Shown: positions 21,484 through 48,628 of the stretch, piece after piece | Layout of the letters: every line of letters starts with the position of its first letter | Numbering within the stretch: position 1 is the stretch's first letter | Origin: Clostridia bacterium | Lineage (GTDB): Bacteria > Bacillota > Clostridia > Lachnospirales > Lachnospiraceae | Assembly: GCA_029101305.1 (NCBI GenBank) | Contig: JAQXQS010000147.1 | Location: forward strand, 1 to 58,075 | Direction of reading: 5' to 3' | Length of the DNA stretch: 58,075 nucleotides | Position numbers and translations under genes: made by a program | The notes under the pieces: model-generated | Told to the model about the DNA's origin: nothing | The model's database searches: none | The model's input: only the letters and a program-made list of their open reading frames with translations

Positions 21484-21515
21484 CAAAATACACGTATGAA
21501 AAAAACACGTATCCG

Positions 21516-21605
21516 CTATATCCCTACGTTGGCATTATCCAAATCAGGTTACGGGTCCAGACCAAACATTCTGTTCTCAGCCTGCTTACGGCAAGCTCCC
21601 CTTTC
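21516..21605 (-). promoter_or_regulatory. TPP riboswitch controlling thiM-thiE-HAD
   Basis: On the minus strand the THI-box core is present: GGGGAGC, CTGAGA (complement of 21573-21578), GGACCCG, ACCTGATTTGGATAATGCC and AACGTAGGGA. The aptamer is followed by the terminator at 21451-21483, a transcriptional off-switch. Confidence 0.95.
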
Positions 21606-21619
21606 ATCTATTCTTGTAC

Positions 21620-29366: not shown

Positions 29367-30238
29367 TTACAACTTAACCATCTCACATATGGTCTGTTTC
29401 ACTTTCTCCATATCCAGCGGCTTCGCCAGATGGGCATTCATTCCAGCTGCAAGACAGTTCTCTTCATCCTCTTTGAAAGCATTCGCTGTCATGGCAATGA
29501 TCGGAATCGTCTTTGCTGCATCCCTGCCAGCACCTCTGTCAGCTGTGTATTTAATCCGCTTGTATCTTTTTTATCAAATGCAACTCCAAGCTCCACTGAC
29601 TGCAAAGTTTCTTCCAGAATCCTGAATTTCAATCCTGTATCTGCCATAAACTGGTCTACTGAAGTGTCATGTGCTGCCAACGCATCCACATACCCTTTAC
29701 TTAGAAGAATAAAGATCAGGTCTCTTTTCTGTACGAAAATCACCTTACGCAGCTGAGGAAACGTACCATCATGACTGCGGATGATATCCTCTGGTTTGGT
29801 GGTATTCTGTACAGCGATCACTTTATCCTCCAGATCCTGCAATGTCTGGATGTCACTGTCTTCGTTTACCGCACCTACCTGACGGCTGCGCATGTAAGGT
29901 CCGGCCCAGTTATATTCATCCTCACGCCCGGTCATGGTAAAACTACTCCAGATACAGTCTATCTCTCCATCTGCCAGTAAATCCTTCTTGTCCTCCCAAT
30001 TGATGAAAACAAATTCCGGAGCATACCCCATTCTGGAAAAAGCTTCCCTGGCCAGTTCTACGTCAATTCCCGTCATTTCCCCATTGGCGTCTGCATAACT
30101 AAACGGAGAATAGTTGTCACAGCCCACTATTATTTCAGGCAGATTTTCATTTTTTGTATTTTCCTCAGCTCTGCTGCATCCGCCGAGTATGCTTCCCAGC
30201 AGCAGAACTACCAGGCCAAGGCTGATTATCTTTTTCAT
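29367..30238 (-). pseudogene. Remnant of a binding-protein/hybrid kinase: intact sensor domain fused out of frame to a receiver tail
   Basis: Residues 1-242 of the open frame (29489-30238, 249 aa) form a lipoprotein (lipobox LGGC) with a family 3 amino-acid-binding domain (GCDNYSPFSYADANGEMTGIDVELA). After VLAGMQQ the frame runs seven foreign residues to a stop. In another frame, from the same point down to a TAA at 29367, lies the end of a receiver: KTIPIIAMTANAFKEDEEN, then MNAHLAKPLDMEKV. The parent was probably a binding-domain hybrid kinase of about 900 residues that lost its kinase and most of its receiver. The junction is near 29515-29530, where both parents could share a GCAGGGATGCAGCA segment. 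The binding domain alone might still be secreted. Confidence 0.8.
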
Positions 30239-31528: not shown

Positions 31529-31606
31529 AACTAAACGAACATGTCTGCTTACGCAGACATCACCATAAATGAAAGTCGATTGCTCCGCGCCTATGGCGCT
31601 CCCACA
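31529..31606. repeat. Dispersed structured repeat, copy B (extended)
   Basis: Matches 21360-21437 at about 72 of 78 positions. Here a 113-bp segment (31607-31719) is inserted before the common end GGACTTTCATA. The insert folds into two compound hairpins: GACTGTAT 31613-31620 with ATACAGTC 31651-31658, and CCTGTGCA 31662-31669 with TGCACAGG 31714-31721. The second encloses a long imperfect stem centred on ACATGCAAGCATG. Confidence 0.8.
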
Positions 31607-31739
31607 ATCGCTGACTGTATTCGTAATCCGGGCTATCGCCCTACTTACTCATACAGTCTAGCCTGTGCAATATCCATAAATCCAACATGCAAGCATGCTG
31701 GATTCATGGCTGCTGCACAGGACTTTCATAGTAAAAAAG

Positions 31740-31852: not shown

Positions 31853-32929
31853 TTATCCTTCCCGGACCACCTTCTGGATCAGCCTGATCCTGTCTTTTCC
31901 AATTCCCTTGTTTGAAAGGATTCCGCATCCCGGTGTAAAAATAAAATTCTTTCCGCCTACTTCTGCACACGCATTCTGATATCTCTCTTTGAACCTTTTC
32001 TCAATTTCCTCCAGCGAAGAAGAGAAAGTAAAATCCGAAACTCTCTCAATTCCTGCCATAATCACCTTGTCTGTGTGGGAACGGACTTCGGAAATAGAGG
32101 TGCGCTCCTCATCACTGACTCCAGGCACATGATCTTCCCAGTTAAACGCCTGGGCTTCACACTGATAGATCTGGTCAAACATAAGATTTTTGATTCCATG
32201 TACATGAAGCACATTAAACCAGGTATACCCTTTCACTTTTTCCAGAAAATCCATGAGAAAAGGCTTCTCAAACCGCTGGAAATCAGCTTCACTGATCAAT
32301 TCCCTGGTTGTATACTGGGTAGAATAAAAGAATCCATCTACACCAGCTTCGATCATGCCTTTGGCAAGTCTCAGATTGTTCTCATGAATCACTTCCAGCC
32401 CATGCATCAGTTCGTTCGGATATTTCTCTATATAATCAGAAACTGTCGGCACCTGGTAACTGCTGTAATCCAGACCTTCCACCCGCTCTATAGGTGAAGT
32501 ACAAAGCTTCAGCCAGGAAAGCGGAGTAAAAAATGTGGGAATTACCACTTTTTCTTTTTTGTAATGTTTCACAATTCCGTCAGCCGCACGAAGTTCCCTG
32601 GCAAATACCGGGTTTTCCAGTGTCAGAGGCTCCAGCGCAGCCAGTGCCTCCGGTGAAGAAAACGCAAATTTCTTTGTAATTCCGCAAAGTCTGGCAGGAT
32701 CATTTTCAGGAAATTCGATCACATCCCCGCAGGCTTCTCCCATATACTGAGGCTGTGACATGATCTTTACCAGATCCCAGTTATTTTCCTCTGTGAAACG
32801 AATGGTTCCGGCAATCATTTTCTCCGGATCACGGTCGATTAGCGAATTATGCTGCCAGCCTCCGATCGGTGTTACGTCCACTTCTTTTCCTTCCAGAACT
32901 GCCTGGATTCTCTGATAGCCATTCATCAT
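31853..32929 (-). CDS. Uroporphyrinogen-decarboxylase-family protein (corrinoid methyltransferase type, MtaA/CmuA-like)
   Basis: This 358-residue TIM-barrel protein is of the UroD superfamily. Lachnospiraceae use many members as methyl-corrinoid:acceptor methyltransferases rather than in haem synthesis. A probable zinc site comprises HVHGIKNL and the C-terminal TPGCGI. The start at 32929 is chosen because ATGA overlaps the previous stop and GGAGAG is correctly spaced; the frame stays open 57 bp further upstream but without a site. It is last in the EamA-chimera-QueG-like operon. The substrate is unknown and no corrinoid protein gene adjoins it. Confidence 0.87.
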   Translation of the reverse strand: MMNGYQRIQAVLEGKEVDVTPIGGWQHNSLIDRDPEKMIAGTIRFTEENNWDLVKIMSQPQYMGEACGDVIEFPENDPARLCGITKKFAFSSPEALAALEPLTLENPVFARELRAADGIVKHYKKEKVVIPTFFTPLSWLKLCTSPIERVEGLDYSSYQVPTVSDYIEKYPNELMHGLEVIHENNLRLAKGMIEAGVDGFFYSTQYTTRELISEADFQRFEKPFLMDFLEKVKGYTWFNVLHVHGIKNLMFDQIYQCEAQAFNWEDHVPGVSDEERTSISEVRSHTDKVIMAGIERVSDFTFSSSLEEIEKRFKERYQNACAEVGGKNFIFTPGCGILSNKGIGKDRIRLIQKVVREG

Positions 32930-33621
32930 CGTTCTCTCCAATCTTCCCATCCCTCTTCCGTTCCCATTGGACAGGATACTATACATTTTCCGCAGGCCAG
33001 CTTTCTTCCCAGCTTTGTGTTTTTCGCACGGTTTCTTCCATCACTGCATAACTGGTAATTTACCATTTTTTCCCGGGAAATGCCAGGTTCCCACTGAACA
33101 CCGCTCAGCACCTTAAACAAACATGCATCTACACATTTGCGACAGTCTCCGCAATGACTTTTATCCATCGGGATTCCGTCATCCAACGGTGCATCCACCA
33201 GAATCCCGGACATGGAAAGCCTTGGACCAAATCCTGGCGTGATCAGCAGATTGTTCTTTCCGATCCAGCCAAGACCAGCACGCCTTGCGGCCTCCTTCAC
33301 GGAAAATTCAGCTGTCATTGTCTTACTCAGATCCGGCAGAACTACAACATGATGCGCAATCCCCTTTTCCTCCAGCATCCTGCTCATTTTTGCCTCAAAT
33401 TCATTCCGATAGGGAAAAGTAGCATATTGGATTTCACGGAAATGAGGTTCTTTATATCCTTTCAAAGTCAGCATTTCAGAAAAAGGAAATACAGTTACGA
33501 TCACGTGGGTATAGGTTCCCTTACAGGCGTCTTTCCACAAAGCACAGCTCCCCCAGAATGCATTCGGATAGCTCTCTTTCACAATGCTGTCTATCGCATT
33601 TTCAAGCTCTTTTCTTTCCAT
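32926..33621 (-). CDS. QueG-like 4Fe-4S double-cluster protein
   Basis: This 231-residue protein resembles the C-terminal half of epoxyqueuosine reductase, with the corrinoid-contacting segment AARRAGLGWIGKNNLLITP. Two ferredoxin motifs follow: CGDCRKCVDAC and CGKCIVSCPMG, with another Cys in YQLCSDG. Full QueG has a longer form with HEAT repeats; such short versions accompany methyltransferase operons. Coupling to the UroD-like gene by ATGA suggests electron transfer to, or reductive activation of, a corrinoid cofactor (inference). The start at 33621 follows TGGAGG; an upstream in-frame ATG lacks a site. Confidence 0.85.
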   Translation of the reverse strand: MERKELENAIDSIVKESYPNAFWGSCALWKDACKGTYTHVIVTVFPFSEMLTLKGYKEPHFREIQYATFPYRNEFEAKMSRMLEEKGIAHHVVVLPDLSKTMTAEFSVKEAARRAGLGWIGKNNLLITPGFGPRLSMSGILVDAPLDDGIPMDKSHCGDCRKCVDACLFKVLSGVQWEPGISREKMVNYQLCSDGRNRAKNTKLGRKLACGKCIVSCPMGTEEGWEDWRER

Positions 33622-34288
33622 TCTGTATTGCCTCCACATTTATTAATCTATCTTCAATTACTGTATTCTGGATTTCAGCGTAAAGTTCATTTCTCTTCTC
33701 TTCATCTCTGCAGGAACGAGCTTCGTCCAGCATTGCATCTACATCCGGGTTGCTATATGTAGAATAGCTTTCTCCGGAATGAAGAACTGCATAGATTGCA
33801 GCATCAACATCCAGATATTGTCCGCCGCCATGCAGATCCACTACATAATCAGCAATCCCAAGAATCATCCCCAATATAAATTCTCCATATTTATAAGAAA
33901 ATGAATCTCCCGGCTGTTCCCGGTCAAATACCCGGTTTAGATTGACTCCGTCCACCGGACTTCCATTAGCCTGACCTTCATATGCTGAAACATTCAGGAT
34001 TGGAACCAGAAGTACATTCCCATATAGTTCTTCCGGCTTCAATTCCTCCCGCAGATGCATAACCGTGATGATTCCGTCGTATTCATCTCCATGAAGCGCT
34101 GCTTCCACCCAAATTGTCTTCTGTTTGTGACCCTGGCTCCCCTGTATTCCCTTCAGATAATAATATGGAATCTTCTGCCTTATTCCTTCCACTTTAGTGG
34201 AAAAGAATCCTGCCAGGCTGCTTCCACATTCCATGTTCCTTGTCTTTTCCCGGAACAAGGCCAGTTCTCTTTCCACTTCCTTCTTCAT
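33602..34288 (-). pseudogene. Chimera of an M14 aspartoacylase-like peptidase and a peptide-binding-protein tail
   Basis: Residues 1 to about 172 are a succinylglutamate desuccinylase/aspartoacylase-type zinc enzyme, with HGDE at 66-69 and HGGG at 153-156. Normal members continue another 100-150 residues. Here the sequence switches at about residue 173 to YSNPDVDAMLDEARSCRDEEKRNELY, the typical C-terminus of a family 5 dipeptide/oligopeptide-binding protein. A deletion probably joined two genes in frame. The zinc ligands remain but the C-terminal part of the fold is lost, so activity is doubtful. AAAGGAG precedes the ATG. The 3' end overlaps the QueG-like start and the 5' end overlaps the EamA gene by 95 bp. 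Confidence 0.8.
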
Positions 34289-39732: not shown

Positions 39733-41505
39733 TCATCTTCGGACAATTTCCATCCTGATTACATCCTTCAGCCTCTTCATATCCACCGGCTTGGACACAT
39801 GTGCATTCATACCAGCTTTCATGCTGCGCTCAATATCTTCCTGAAACGCATTGGCAGTCATTGCAATGATCGGAATGGTCTTTCCAAGAGGATTTCTGCC
39901 AGTTCGGATCTCCTTCGTCGCCTCATATCCATTCATAACCGGCATCTGCACATCCATTAAGATAGCCGCATATTCTCCCGGCCGTACTTTTTCAAAAGCT
40001 TCCACCAGCAGCTTTCCATTTCCAAAAACAGTACAGCCTGCACCTTCCAGCTCCAGCATGGAAACCAATATTTCAGCATTCAACGCATTGTCTTCCGCAC
40101 AGAGGAAATGCAGGCCACTTAAGCTGAAAGCCTCGCCCTTATTCTGTTCAGCTTTATTCTTTACACTACCTTCATCATAGAAAGCCATTTTATTTTGCGA
40201 TTCACCTTTTAATATTTCTTCACTCAATGATACTCTATTGGGGATTTCTCCATCTTTCGCACTACCATTCAGATATATATTCCCCAGCCTATCCTCAGGC
40301 TTCTTCAGCATTTTTTCTTCCTGGCACACCTCAAACGGAATCTCGATTTCAAATCTGCTTCCCTTTCCAAGCTCACTTTCCACGCAGATCTTTCCGCCCA
40401 TGGCATCCACTATATTCTTAGTAATCGCCATTCCAAGTCCGGTTCCCTGGATTTCGCCTACAGTTGCTTCTGAACGGGAAAACGCGTCAAAAATATGCTC
40501 CAGGAATTCCTTAGACATACCCATTCCGCTGTCCTCTATCACAAAATAATAATTTCGTTCCTGCTCATCTATATCTGTTTCCCCTATGGTAAAACGAATC
40601 TTCCCTCCATTTGGAGTATATTTAATCGCATTGGAAAATATATTCATCAAAACCTGCCGGAACCGGACTGGATCTCCATATAGGTATCCATATCTTGCAT
40701 TCTCTCCCCTGACAGTCAGTTCCAGATTCTTTTTATTAATCTGCGGGCGTATGATCGTAATAATCTGTTCAATCTGCGCACCGATATCCATAGCTTCATT
40801 TCTAAGTTCCATGGAACCATTCTCGATTTTACTCAGATCCAGGATGTCATTGATAAGATCCAACAAATACTGGCTGGAAGACTGCAGTTTCTCAATATAG
40901 TTTTTCAGCACTTCCGGATTTTCTACATTCCGCCACATCAGCTCTCCCAGTCCCACAATGGCGTTCATGGGTTTACGGATATCGTGACTCATATTAGCCA
41001 GAAATTCTGTCTTGGAACGGTTCGCCTGCTCTGCTGCCCGTCTGGCATAATCCAATTTCTTATTGATTTCCTGATTTTCCCGGAGTGTCTGCTCCAGCTT
41101 CCGGTTACTGCGCGTCAGCTGTCTTTTGGCATCAGTCAGCTGATTGTTGATCTGTTGGATCATAAAATATTCGTTATGAAAAATCCCATATATGTGATCT
41201 TCTGCCCAGGCTACATATTTAGGATACTCGTTGTTAAACTCCTGAAATTCCCGGCTGTTTTCAACCTTTGAAAGGATAACCAGACGTCCCTCTTTATAAG
41301 AACGGATAACTGCAGGTACCACCAGGTTTTCTTTTGCAAAAGTAAGCTCCAGTGAATATTATTCTTCCTCGTTATCCTCCAGTTTCTCTTTCTCCGAAAT
41401 CATTTTAAACAGAGACTCCCCCTCACTTAAGCTCAAATCAGGGCTGCATTGACGTATTTTTCTGATATTCCATTTTCTGTCACATAAAAAAACTGCGTAT
41501 ATCAT
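39733..41505 (-). pseudogene. Soluble hybrid histidine kinase with an in-frame TAA
   Basis: The frame from an ATG at 41505 gives a 48-residue segment ending EKLEDNEEE, then TAA at 41359-41361. It resumes in the same frame with YSLELTFAKENLVVPAV and runs to 39733. The downstream part (from 41322, 529 aa) has a PAS-like segment, a coiled coil, a HisKA box SHDIRKPMNAI, an HATPase with DSGMGMSKEF and GTGLGMAI, and a C-terminal receiver with AILMDVQMPVMNG and KPVDM. No membrane helix is present. Lys replaces the usual Thr four residues after the phospho-acceptor His, a position needed for phosphatase activity. The gene follows a B12-sensor gene that is also stopped by TAA. Confidence 0.75.
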
Positions 41506-41610
41506 CTCTTCTAATACAACCTCTGCTCTCTTAGTTTCATAACATCAAAGACAAGAAAAAAATACTGTTTTTATAACACTCTGCCCAATATACAAAGTAG
41601 ACTCCATCAA

Positions 41611-42666
41611 TCAAGCACAAATCTTATTCGCTCTCTCCAGCAATTCCCTGGCATCCTTCGAATAAATATCCACCGGCCACTTTTTCCAGATGTCATTGGT
41701 ACTTTCAAATGCTTTTCCGCCAACTGCCACCTTTATATTCGGAAACTCCTTTTTAATCTCCCTTACCGCCTTTTCACAGTCCATCAGATGCTGTGGCATA
41801 GATACAGACAATGTGATCAGATCTGGCTGATTCTCCTTTACAGATTCCATAATATAATCTACCGGAACCGCAGCCCCAAGGAAAATACTGTCCCATCCGT
41901 GATTTTCAAAAAGGTCTGCTACAATGCGCGCTCCCATCTCATGAAGCTCCATTCCCGGACAGACACTTAAGATCGTCTTATTCTTTCTCTCACCGTCAAA
42001 AAGCTTGTCGTACATCTGGGACATTGCCATCTGGGTAACTGAGGTACAATAATGTTATGTATCGACAGAAATCTCCGCTGTATGCCAAAGCTCTCCTACT
42101 CTTCTCATACTCTCAGAAAGAATCTCCACATAAATATCATCAAGCTCCATTCCCTGTTCCATAAATTTACGGATCTTTCCAACAGCCCCGCGGGTATCCT
42201 TTTTGAAAAGACAGCCCATATATTCCTCTATTTCTTTTTCATAACGTGATTCTTTTTTCACATTATCTGCGGGAACATAATCCCGGATGCACTGCTGTGC
42301 CTCCTCGATCAGCTGCTGCGGCTTCTCATGCTTCTCCTCACTTACCACCTTCGGTATCGTTTTCTTGATCGCTTCCAGATGGAAAATCACATATTCTCTT
42401 GTCTGCTCACGGGTAAAACGTTTCTTGTGGATTCCAACCATAAGTTCATATAACCACACTGCATAACTATTCATGATCTTCTCGTCGCCTAACACATAAG
42501 CCGTGTACAGATAATCTATATTATAGCGGGTATCCCTGTAAATAATCTTTCTCGCGCGTTCATCAATAGACCGGAAATACTCTTCCTTATCATGACTCTC
42601 TCTTGCATAAGATTCCTCCACAAGATGTTCAAACTCAGCCTCATATTCCATCCATAACAAACTCAT
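41611..42666 (-). pseudogene. CarH-like B12-binding sensor protein with an in-frame TAA
   Basis: Two open pieces in the same frame are split by one TAA at 42055-42057. The first part (to GELWHTAEISVDT) has an N-terminal helical region and the B12 cap helix bundle. The second (HYCTSVTQMAMSQ onward) completes it and has a Rossmann B12 domain with the cobalt-ligand motif ELHEMG and VAVGGKAF. If TAA were GAA, the protein would have W-x9-E-H, the motif that cradles the adenosyl group in CarH-type light sensors, so the stop replaces the conserved Glu. Reading through gives about 351 residues from 42666 (AGAAGGAG upstream). No DNA-binding domain is present; the adjacent hybrid kinase is the likely partner. 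Confidence 0.78.
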
Positions 42667-45859: not shown

Positions 45860-47164
45860 CTATTTATTTACTTCCCCGAAGCATTCCTCAACTTTTCTGA
45901 TAACTTCCTTATCCAGCCAGCCTCTGCCGCCCATATCTTCCAGAATCCCACAAGCTTTTTCATGGGACATTTCCTTTTTATATGGCCGGCTCTCTGTCAG
46001 CGCCTGATAGATATCAGCACATGCCATGATTCGCTCCTGGGTATTCAATTCCTCTCCTGTTTTTCCAAAAGGATATCCACTGCCGTCCAGATGTTCATGA
46101 TGAAAAGCTGCCCAATCCCTCATCTCATGGAAATTATCAATTTCTGCCAAAATATAATAGGTGTAAGCAGCATGATGCTTCATGATTGCAAACTCATCAT
46201 CCGTAAGGCGCCCCGGTTTTTCCAGAATCTCATTTCCAATGGCTACCTTTCCAATATCATGCAGCGCACCAGCCAGATACATCTTCTGTGCTGTCTCCTC
46301 ATCAAAACCCATGAAGCGTGCCAGTCTCTCAGCAGTCTCTGCTACTCCAATAGAATGTGTGCTGGTAAAAGGAGATTTATAATCAACGATTCGGGCAAAA
46401 AACTTTGCCAGCTCTTTTATCTGGGAAAAATCAAGCTCCTTTGTTTCACGTGAAACTCTATTCCACAGCTTTTTTTCCAGATCTTTTTGTTTCAGAGACA
46501 GGAAATGTTCCTCTGTAAATGCTGCACGGAAACCATTTATGCACTCTTCATCCACAACTGAGCCATTGATTTGTGTGATAAAATTATCCCCCTGCTTCCA
46601 GGTATCTTCTGCAAACTCTTCTTTTCCATAATCCCGGTCCAGCAAATCACAAAAATGTATAATTCTTGCAAAAAGCGGAACCTCCTTCCAGTTTTTCCCG
46701 AAAGGACCACTTCCATCTGCATTTTCATGGTGATACAATATTACATTTTTTACATCTGTATGAAAAGGAAGGTTGCGGATATTTTTTTCGCCCAGGGCAC
46801 AATGAATGCCAAGCTGTGGTACTGCTTTGCCACTTATGTCATTACCATCCTCATTCCTTACTGAACCTGCAGTGAAATTTTTATTCGGGCTTTTATCCAA
46901 GCTTTCATTCGAGCCATCGTTCTGACTTTCATCCATCCCCTGCAGTTCTTCCTGTATATACTGTGTAAGTGCATTATCATGCAGCAAAGCACACACAGTC
47001 AGATCCTGCAGCTTTTTCCCCTGGATTCCCATCTGCTGTGCCATGCACACACTCATATATGCCACACGCTTCGCATGTTTATCTGTTACATGGACCAGCT
47101 CCGCCTCTACGCAGTCTAACGCGTAGGAGCAGGCTGCCATCAGACCTAAAACATCTAATTCCAT
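45860..47164 (-). CDS. HD-GYP c-di-GMP phosphodiesterase
   Basis: This 434-residue soluble protein has two HD halves. The first (about 20-215) has CALLHDN and a HHE-like YHHENADGSGPFGKNW. The second (about 255-430) is a full HD-GYP domain: ALHDIGKVAIG, KHHAAYTYYIL, HHEHLDGSGYPFG (the GYP motif) and ACADIYQALTESRPYK. It should hydrolyse c-di-GMP. It ends the operon with the GGDEF sensor and sugar-binding lipoprotein, 18 bp after the former. A synthase and a degrader in one operon imply local, ligand-set c-di-GMP control. Confidence 0.92.
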   Translation of the reverse strand: MELDVLGLMAACSYALDCVEAELVHVTDKHAKRVAYMSVCMAQQMGIQGKKLQDLTVCALLHDNALTQYIQEELQGMDESQNDGSNESLDKSPNKNFTAGSVRNEDGNDISGKAVPQLGIHCALGEKNIRNLPFHTDVKNVILYHHENADGSGPFGKNWKEVPLFARIIHFCDLLDRDYGKEEFAEDTWKQGDNFITQINGSVVDEECINGFRAAFTEEHFLSLKQKDLEKKLWNRVSRETKELDFSQIKELAKFFARIVDYKSPFTSTHSIGVAETAERLARFMGFDEETAQKMYLAGALHDIGKVAIGNEILEKPGRLTDDEFAIMKHHAAYTYYILAEIDNFHEMRDWAAFHHEHLDGSGYPFGKTGEELNTQERIMACADIYQALTESRPYKKEMSHEKACGILEDMGGRGWLDKEVIRKVEECFGEVNK

Positions 47165-47182
47165 ATAGAATAATTTCCCCTC

Positions 47183-48628
47183 TTACTTCATCTTAAAAGC
47201 GCCTTTTCCATGCTGCTTCACATCATACAAGGCCGCATCTGCTGCTCTGCACAAGGATACGAAATCCTCTCCCTGCTCTGGGAAAGCAGAACCTCCGGCG
47301 CTTGCAGACAACTCCACCTCTTCGCCTGTAGACAACGTCAGATGAGAAATCAGCCTCTGGAAATCTGCCATATAATTCCGCACTTCCTCTGCATTCATAT
47401 TTTTCAGATAAGCAACGAACTCATCCCCGCCATATCTTCCAATAATACTGTCCTGTGGAAAACAGGTTCGCATCATTTCTGCAAAGTGCTTCAGGCACAA
47501 ATCTCCGTTGTTATGTCCATAAGTGTCATTATATTTTTTGAAATTATCTACATCAATAAATACAAAATATCCAGGAGTCTTCTTACTAAGTTCTCCTTCC
47601 AGCGCACTCTGGAATGCCCTGCGGTTCAAAATTCCTGTAAGCGCATCTGTAGCCGACAAGCCCATGTACATCTTCTTATCTTTTTTCTCCAGGAACACAA
47701 TGGTAAGCATATACAAAACCGTGAAGCCCACAAGAATACTGCCATATACTCCACCCCACGCTGAAAAATGCTGGGTAATATCTGAAATATTCTTATTCGT
47801 AAGTTCAACGATCACATACCAGCCCGGCATACCTGAAATGCTGCAATAAGATATAGTAGATGCTTCATCTCTGATCGTCACGGAAAATCTGCCTTCCTTT
47901 TTCCCGGACTGCATATCCTTTACCCACTGATTATATGAATAATCCGCATCGTACTGGAAATACCTCTGCTGAAGCAGAAGATTGTTCCAATTTCCTGCTA
48001 TATTGGAGGCATCACTGATACAAGTGATATAATTCTCCGAATCAGCTTTCAGAAGATGGACGCTGATCTTGCCCTGCAGCAGCTCATAATCCCCAAGCTG
48101 TCTCAGATTCTCGATCATAATCGATACGTAAAGAGAATGAATCCTTGCAGACTCTTTCATAGGAACAAAAACTGTCATAACCATGCTTCCGTTCTCACTT
48201 GACTGATACGGATCTGAATTAAAAGTGGTGTCTGTACTTAACGCAAGCTTATCAAGCCCTTCTTTTTTTATATCAGAGGCTGTACATGAGCTGCCATATA
48301 TTTCTCCATTATTCAGAATGATTCCGATGTTACTGAACACTGTCTCATCCAAATTTTCTTCCAGCTGTTTCTGGATTTCCTCCAGACTGGAATTTCCCAT
48401 GGACTGGATCATCTTTACATCCTCCTGGGCAAAATTCTGAAGGTATTCCATGGAATCGTTCATTCGTTCCGCATACAATCCGGTGATCAGCTCGAGATGC
48501 TGGGTATTAAAATTTCTGGCAATCCTTGACAGATGAAAATAAGCGGCTATAACAATTGCCAGACAGACGGTCAGATACAGGACCAACAGCATTTTTCTTT
48601 TTGTTTTGTGTTTTCTACGGTCTTTCAT
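47183..48628 (-). CDS. Membrane sensor diguanylate cyclase (extracellular Cache-like domain + GGDEF)
   Basis: This 481-residue protein has a helix at about 13-34, an extracellular sensor of about 250 residues, a second helix (YGSILVGFTVLYMLTIVFLE) and a C-terminal GGDEF domain. The active loop is GRYGGDEF; DALTGILNRRAF and VDVDNFKKYNDTYGH-like segments are intact. Its ATG overlaps the preceding binding-protein stop by 4 bp. The lipoprotein may present its ligand to this sensor at the outer face of the membrane, as sugar-binding proteins do for LytS/YesM-type kinases (inference). Confidence 0.93.
   Translation of the reverse strand: MKDRRKHKTKRKMLLVLYLTVCLAIVIAAYFHLSRIARNFNTQHLELITGLYAERMNDSMEYLQNFAQEDVKMIQSMGNSSLEEIQKQLEENLDETVFSNIGIILNNGEIYGSSCTASDIKKEGLDKLALSTDTTFNSDPYQSSENGSMVMTVFVPMKESARIHSLYVSIMIENLRQLGDYELLQGKISVHLLKADSENYITCISDASNIAGNWNNLLLQQRYFQYDADYSYNQWVKDMQSGKKEGRFSVTIRDEASTISYCSISGMPGWYVIVELTNKNISDITQHFSAWGGVYGSILVGFTVLYMLTIVFLEKKDKKMYMGLSATDALTGILNRRAFQSALEGELSKKTPGYFVFIDVDNFKKYNDTYGHNNGDLCLKHFAEMMRTCFPQDSIIGRYGGDEFVAYLKNMNAEEVRNYMADFQRLISHLTLSTGEEVELSASAGGSAFPEQGEDFVSLCRAADAALYDVKQHGKGAFKMK

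What the first reader, a model, noticed from the sequence alone, without database searches (positions are those of the whole stretch)
39733..42666. CarH-like B12 sensor paired with a soluble hybrid kinase: a possible B12/light-responsive phosphorelay
Seen: a DNA-binding-free B12 protein (helical cap plus Rossmann domain with ELHEMG) followed directly by a cytosolic hybrid histidine kinase with PAS-like, HisKA, HATPase and receiver parts. Known: CarH/LitR light sensors use W-x9-E-H to bind adenosylcobalamin, but are fused to MerR-type DNA-binding domains. Here the same cap motif (W-x9-[stop]-H) belongs to a protein whose partner is a kinase. Inference: an adenosylcobalamin-state sensor feeding a phosphorelay in a gut anaerobe.
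Basis: partly seen in the sequence, partly recalled or inferred. Interest (0 to 1): 0.75.

Follow-up and report, generated by a model that had tools for sequence, protein, structure and literature searches.

The report
Broken photocobilin gene with kinase partner
This two-gene unit looks like a decayed copy of a vitamin-B12-and-bilin sensor (a photocobilin) next to the signalling protein it probably controls; relatives in other bacteria keep the pairing but swap the signalling output.

Summary
On the minus strand, gene A (42666-41611) is followed after 105 bp by gene B (41505-39733), a soluble HisKA-HATPase-receiver kinase. Both are broken: A by TAA at 42055-42057 inside W-x9-E-H, B by TAA at 41359-41361. 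So A is best read as a photocobilin with the globin first. Relatives keep the cap and cobalt-ligand residues. In 22 of 25 globin-B12 loci the next gene encodes a hybrid kinase (14), GGDEF (5) or GGDEF-EAL protein (3), nearly always with a shared coiled-coil motif; XRE-HTH relatives show this in 1 of 13 (2 more upstream). The window's kinase pair nests among GGDEF-EAL pairs, implying output swapping. Light sensing is untested; 24 of 28 genomes searched gave no heme-oxygenase match. Photocobilins are known; the two-gene, swappable-output form is the variant, unless the photoglobin paper of 2022, which is not held, already lists it.

The parts
41611..42666 (-). gene A: photocobilin-type B12 protein (351 codons and stop), interrupted
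   Evidence: ATG at 42666 with AGGAG upstream
42247..42666 (-). N-terminal photoglobin-like (bilin-type globin) domain; Asp45 and Trp71 present
   Evidence: model and PDB matches made on the relative L073, window piece as an alignment row
42058..42246 (-). linker and first part of the B12 cap (B12-binding_2), up to W-x9
42055..42057 (-). in-frame TAA, codon 204 of gene A, at the column where the other 26 aligned loci have the cap Glu
41611..42054 (-). rest of the cap and Rossmann B12-binding domain with ELHEMG (cobalt-ligand His)
39733..41505 (-). gene B: cytosolic hybrid histidine kinase, interrupted
41359..41361 (-). in-frame TAA, codon 49 of gene B, in its N-terminal sensor-like part
41116..41151 (-). 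coiled-coil motif INNQLTDAKRQL of the kind shared with other partners
39757..41016 (-). HisKA, HATPase_c and receiver domains (outer bounds of the Pfam stretches)

Best explanation
Gene A is a photocobilin: an N-terminal photoglobin domain with a bilin pocket, followed by a CarH-type adenosylcobalamin-binding unit (helical cap with W-x9-E-H, Rossmann domain with E-x-H). Gene B is its dedicated cytosolic effector, encoded in the same unit. In intact relatives, loss or photolysis of the adenosyl ligand would change A's shape or assembly; A would pass this to the partner by direct contact, most likely at the partner's conserved coiled coil just before the output domain, and so change kinase, diguanylate cyclase or phosphodiesterase activity. 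Shown here: domain make-up (the globin by weak sequence and better structural evidence), residue conservation, gene pairing, shared coil, output swapping on a tree. Inferred: ligand binding, light or cobalamin response, contact at the coil. In the window's own strain both genes carry a premature stop, so the pair is probably recently inactivated, or the stops are assembly errors.
For: Profile of 12 rows against the PDB: B12 unit to photocobilins 8j2w/8j2x (114 bits) and 8j2y (82 bits), the first three of 32 sequences, CarH lower (34 bits); N-terminal part to the globin domain of 8j2y (16.6 bits, i-E 0.034) and 8j2w/8j2x (9.0 bits). Model of the N-terminal domain (pLDDT 87.0) matches phycobiliproteins, smURFP and 8j2w/8j2x. 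Asp45 in 23 of 24 and Trp71 in 24 of 24 globin-type loci aligned. Next gene is a recognised signalling output in 22 of 25 globin-type loci, against 1 of 13 XRE-type relatives. Coil motif in 22 of 23 partners, 0 of 22 other kinases or cyclases (see report for one misfiled row). Tree: the window's HK pair groups with GGDEF-EAL pairs at 97/96. dN/dS to L073 0.084 for A, 0.17 and 0.18 for the pieces of B. Precedent: stand-alone photocobilins change a separate diguanylate cyclase's activity in vitro (PMC10979010, section 8).
Against: The globin match is weak by sequence (i-E 0.034 for 8j2y, 6.8-6.9 for 8j2x/8j2w), and no Foldseek match of the N-terminal model reaches E 0.001 (best 0.021). The full-length model is poor (pLDDT 65.5) and its top matches cover mainly B12-unit proteins. 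No heme-oxygenase match in the window's genome and in only 4 of 28 genomes; HutW/ChuW over cut-off in 0 of 28. Three of 25 loci lack a recognised output next door: G075 (L098/L099), L146, L160. Two XRE-type loci (L106, L113) have a GGDEF gene just upstream, so signalling neighbours are not exclusive to the globin type. Partners of L158, L162 and L099 lack the coil motif. No ligand, light or contact data.
Confidence: 0.72

Rival explanations
1. A is a chemical sensor of adenosylcobalamin (level, form or redox state) that acts in the dark; the photochemistry is incidental. The partner reports coenzyme B12 supply.
For: Most of the 28 genomes show no recognised bilin source; if the hosts live in guts (not tested) they see little light. 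The window's genome has four cobalamin riboswitches over the gathering score, so B12 supply is regulated there.
Against: The residues of the light-responsive proteins are kept almost without exception (residues as described in PMC10979010 and PMC11796333). No cobalamin riboswitch lies in the window.
Confidence: 0.35
2. Both genes are relics in this strain with no function: lesions arose in both, one after the other.
For: Two in-frame TAA stops in adjacent genes. The relative L073 has a frameshift in its kinase and L074 one in its B12 gene; L146 (G795) carries three stops.
Against: dN/dS to L073 stays low on both sides of the stop in A (0.103 and 0.055; dS is 1.2-1.6, near saturation), so decay is recent if real. 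The genome is a 226-contig draft and the stops could be assembly errors. After its stop the kinase keeps 541 open codons and resembles the L109-L112 partners, whose kinase frames begin close to the coil.
Confidence: 0.6
3. A is an ordinary corrinoid protein of a methyltransferase system.
For: NCBIfam hits of the Rossmann part to pyl_corrinoid, MtaC and others; a URO-D family protein (31853-32986) and a 4Fe-4S protein (32926-33639) lie 8-9 kb from gene A.
Against: The corrinoid-protein scores are far under cut-off (best 49.1 bits against 215.3). W-x9-E and the globin-like domain are present, and relatives sit beside signalling genes.
Confidence: 0.03

Closest known systems
Photocobilins SasPcob (8j2w/8j2x) and AbDPcob (8j2y), Zhang et al. 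2024, PMC10979010 (seen: abstract, the opening up to part of the first results section, part 1 of section 7, sections 8 and 9, and passages)
   Same: Globin plus CarH-type B12 unit, W-x9-E-H, E/D-x-H, Asp and Trp of the biliverdin pocket; a stand-alone form acting on a separate enzyme is shown in vitro there.
   Different: Globin first; in the two solved proteins it is last (the paper says the B12 domain may be at either end). The effector is a separate adjacent gene, most often a hybrid kinase; most hosts searched gave no heme-oxygenase match.
CarH / LitR
   Same: B12 unit with cap and Rossmann domain; PDB hits 5c8a and 5c8d.
   Different: No DNA-binding family found in A; a globin-like domain instead.
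AerR (7te2)
   Same: B12 protein that acts through a protein partner (recalled); profile hit 27.9 bits.
   Different: Much weaker similarity than to photocobilins; no globin known to me.
Photoglobin-B12 neighbourhoods, Schneider et al. 2022 (doi 10.1016/j.csbj.2021.12.022)
   Same: From recall of the abstract: photoglobins are tied to B12 domains and signal-transduction domains in fusions and gene neighbourhoods.
   Different: Paper not held, so I do not know whether it lists these Bacillota pairs, the coil or the output swap.

Membership tests
photocobilin | CarH-type B12 unit with W-x9-E-H | tested here: met
   Cap W in 26, E in 26 and H in 27 of 27 aligned loci. The window itself has a stop in place of E, so its own copy is incomplete.
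photocobilin | E/D-x-H cobalt-ligand motif | tested here: met
   27 of 27 aligned loci, window included
photocobilin | globin-like bilin-binding domain fused to the B12 unit | tested here: met
   weak profile match, 16.6 bits and i-E 0.034, to the 8j2y globin; model of the L073 domain matches phycobiliproteins and photocobilin at probability 0.99-1.00, TMq about 0.5-0.7, but best E 0.021
photocobilin | biliverdin-contact Asp270 and Trp296 (SasPcob numbering) | tested here: met
   Asp 23 of 24 (Gly in L108), Trp 24 of 24 globin-type loci; window has both; in three divergent loci Asp 0 of 3, Trp 1 of 3. Numbering offset of 6 counted by hand from Trp61, Glu71-His72 and His108.
photocobilin | binds AdoCbl and biliverdin; green/red light response | not testable with these tools
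   needs a purified intact homologue
CarH/LitR transcription regulator | fused DNA-binding domain | tested here: not met
   no HTH family in the Pfam scan of the gene A pieces at E 0.001
corrinoid methyltransferase protein (MtaC/MttC type) | NCBIfam model above cut-off | tested here: not met
   best 49.1 bits against cut-off 215.3
hybrid histidine kinase | HisKA, HATPase_c and receiver domains | tested here: met
hybrid histidine kinase | uninterrupted reading frame | tested here: not met
   TAA at 41359-41361

The most novel reading that the evidence does not exclude
In Bacillota without heme oxygenase, presumably anaerobes, photocobilins have been turned from light receptors into detectors of two tetrapyrroles at once: corrinoid through the B12 unit and a linear tetrapyrrole from outside or from the B12 pathway (host bile pigment, or a bilane) through the globin. 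They report this through a common coiled-coil socket to whichever output is plugged in: phosphorelay or c-di-GMP.
Probability: 0.12. Interest if true: 0.82.

Novelty: new variant of a known kind. Interest (0 to 1): 0.5.

Why it matters
The 2024 photocobilin paper calls the function of stand-alone photocobilins less clear. These pairs name a concrete adjacent candidate partner in many genomes, with a shared coil and interchangeable outputs, which is directly testable and could serve as a ready-made modular switch. They also ask why a light-sensor architecture with a conserved bilin pocket persists in genomes with no recognised way to make biliverdin.

Tried and rejected
Anaerobilin as bilin source: the HutW/ChuW model gives matches in 28 of 28 genomes but none over its cut-off (over the cut-off in 1 of 14 control genomes). 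Endogenous biliverdin by heme oxygenase: no PF01126 match in the window's genome, 4 of 28 in the wider set; PMC10151467 notes that heme oxygenases can show no significant homology to each other (passage), so this is not proof of absence. Cobalamin riboswitch near the pair: none over gathering score in the window. Corrinoid methyltransferase reading: under the cut-offs. Close orthologue in the genus: of 64 genomes, 3 matched at E 1e-12: the window's own, G430 (47%) and G447, whose match covers only the B12 part of an 814-residue frame. Full-length model: too poor to discuss domain contacts. Literature: the listings of searches showed no title or abstract start on photocobilin-kinase pairs in Lachnospiraceae (79 listed 0 papers). 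I did not read the listed papers other than PMC10979010 (parts), PMC11796333 (abstract, sections 8, 9, 12) and PMC10151467 (passages). Schneider 2022 and the Cheng 2016 review are not held. For the BilR paper and the others only the listing was seen.

Full report
What is there. The window is one whole contig of a 226-contig draft genome; that it belongs to the Lachnospiraceae is inferred from its nearest named relatives. On the minus strand gene A runs from ATG 42666, with AGGAG upstream, to 41611; gene B runs from ATG 41505 to 39733. Each has one in-frame TAA: 42055-42057 in A, 41359-41361 in B. Pfam sees B12-binding_2 and B12-binding in the pieces of A, and HisKA, HATPase_c and a receiver in B.

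Gene A has a further domain. Its first ~140 residues match no Pfam family at E 0.001. A 12-row family profile searched against the PDB ranks photocobilins first of 32 sequences, through the B12 unit, and adds a second, weak match of positions 35-79 to the globin domain of 8j2y (16.6 bits, i-E 0.034) and of positions 40-82 to that of 8j2w/8j2x (9.0 bits, i-E 6.8-6.9). The globin is C-terminal there and N-terminal here. A model of this domain from three rows (L073 first) is good (pLDDT 87.0). Its 50 listed Foldseek matches are nearly all phycobilisome proteins, the biliverdin-binding smURFP and SasPcob; the best E is only 0.021, with probabilities 0.99-1.00. From Trp61, Glu71-His72 and His108 of SasPcob the offset to the chain is 6, so biliverdin-contact Asp270 and Trp296 fall on Asp45 and Trp71 of L073. 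Asp45 is kept in 23 of 24 globin-type loci aligned (Gly in L108), Trp71 in 24 of 24; in three more divergent loci (L157, L158, L162) Asp is kept in 0 and Trp in 1 (L146 was not aligned there). The photocobilin with weak biliverdin binding has His at the Asp position. The stretch x-x-[RQ]-D of many members resembles the CXRD/CXQD motif described for phycobiliproteins and photoglobins, mostly without the Cys.

Light-sensor residues. In the same 27 loci the cap Trp is kept in 26 (Ser in L098), the cap Glu in 26 (the window has its stop there), the cap His and the ligand His in 27.

The pairing. Loci were collected from searches of 392 order, 64 genus, 22 family-f22, 397 family and 398 phylum genomes and one scan of genome contigs. 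Within the window's family the gene is rare: 7 of 397 genomes matched at E 1e-18, one of them (G691) by XRE-type or globin-less proteins. Of 25 loci with both globin and B12 parts (G075, found on two contigs, counted once), the next gene on the same strand is a hybrid kinase in 14, GGDEF in 5 and GGDEF-EAL in 3. The three misses are G075 (partner N-terminus weakly related to other partners, no recognised output), L146 (partner recognisable but without output) and L160 (none). The three divergent loci all have a GGDEF gene next. Pfam was run on ten partner frames from nine loci; the others rest on phmmer with pieces of these. Thirteen relatives in which the B12 unit carries an XRE-type HTH (10 by a pattern, 3 by eye, 1 of them, L106, confirmed by Pfam) have such a downstream gene once (L097, GGDEF at 213 bp) and an upstream GGDEF gene twice (L106, L113). 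The phylum search used a profile built from globin-type rows, so these numbers are not frequencies in nature, and many loci are related. Flanking genes of the window and L073 differ, by eye.

A shared coil. A motif of the kind [LMI]NN-x-L-x-N-x-QR-x-L precedes the output in 22 of 23 partners and in 0 of 22 other kinases and cyclases, seven of them from the window's genome. One 'control' row, L162, is really a partner missed by the distance filter, so the true figures are 22 of 24 against 0 of 21. The window's own kinase, not in that call, has it; the output-less partner of L095 has it and that of L099 lacks it. The motif was written after seeing partners and rows are related, so the Fisher value of 6e-12 overstates the case.

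Swapped outputs. On a 31-row tree the window and L073 pairs (kinase) group with L074, L094 and L108 (GGDEF-EAL) at 97/96 support, with L074 their sister at 100/99. The partner N-termini of L073 and L074 are related (27.3 bits). Five labels (three outputs, XRE, none) need 8 changes where 4 is the least. Nine forks are open and two rows (L099, L162) have long branches.

Decay. Window against L073: dN/dS 0.084 for A, 0.103 before and 0.055 after its stop; 0.17 and 0.18 for the two pieces of B, with dS 1.2-1.6, near saturation. Constraint thus held until recently, or the stops are errors. L073's kinase and L074's B12 gene have frameshifts. I cannot tell decay from draft error.

Mechanism. Stand-alone photocobilins alter the activity of a separate diguanylate cyclase in vitro, which is the model I adopt. 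What the pairs sense in nature is open. A heme-oxygenase match was found in 4 of 28 genomes that carry one of these loci (divergent and globin-less ones included), all in family f56; HutW/ChuW over cut-off in 0 of 28. Heme oxygenases can be too diverged to detect. The window's genome has four cobalamin riboswitches, so it regulates B12 supply.

Verdict. Known kind (photocobilin), in a two-gene, swappable-output form; whether that form was already listed by Schneider et al. 2022 I could not check.

Noticed in passing
L097, L100-L107, L113, L155, L159, L161: XRE-type HTH fused to a CarH-like B12 unit in Bacillota; W-x9-E-H in 12 of 13; Pfam confirms HTH_3 plus both B12 domains in L106, the only one scanned. 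Candidate B12 or light repressors that do not use a MerR domain.
   Followed up: partly
L156 2044-5040: A photocobilin gene is split by an ORF that looks like a group II intron reverse transcriptase (recalled resemblance, no family search); a kinase partner follows.
   Followed up: no
L160 4257-5360: Globin and B12 parts lie in separate adjacent frames without a signalling neighbour, and a Cys stands at the CXRD Cys position, which might allow covalent bilin attachment.
   Followed up: no
L106 and L114, downstream of the B12 gene: B12 proteins followed by what look like FtsX-type ABC permease and ATPase genes (by eye).
   Followed up: no
window 29388-30238: Solute-binding (SBP_bac_3) fragment and a receiver-like remnant on the minus strand, looking like a decayed hybrid sensor.
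   Followed up: no
window 45860-48628: A protein with an HD_5 (HD-GYP-like) domain and a GGDEF protein beside each other, about 3 kb upstream of gene A: perhaps another c-di-GMP module.
   Followed up: no
window 31570-31728 and 21504-21612: Clostridiales-1 RNA and a TPP riboswitch.
   Followed up: no
window gene B, HisKA motif: MSHDIRK where L073 has MSHDIRT: the residue linked to phosphatase activity in HisKA kinases (recalled) differs.
   Followed up: no
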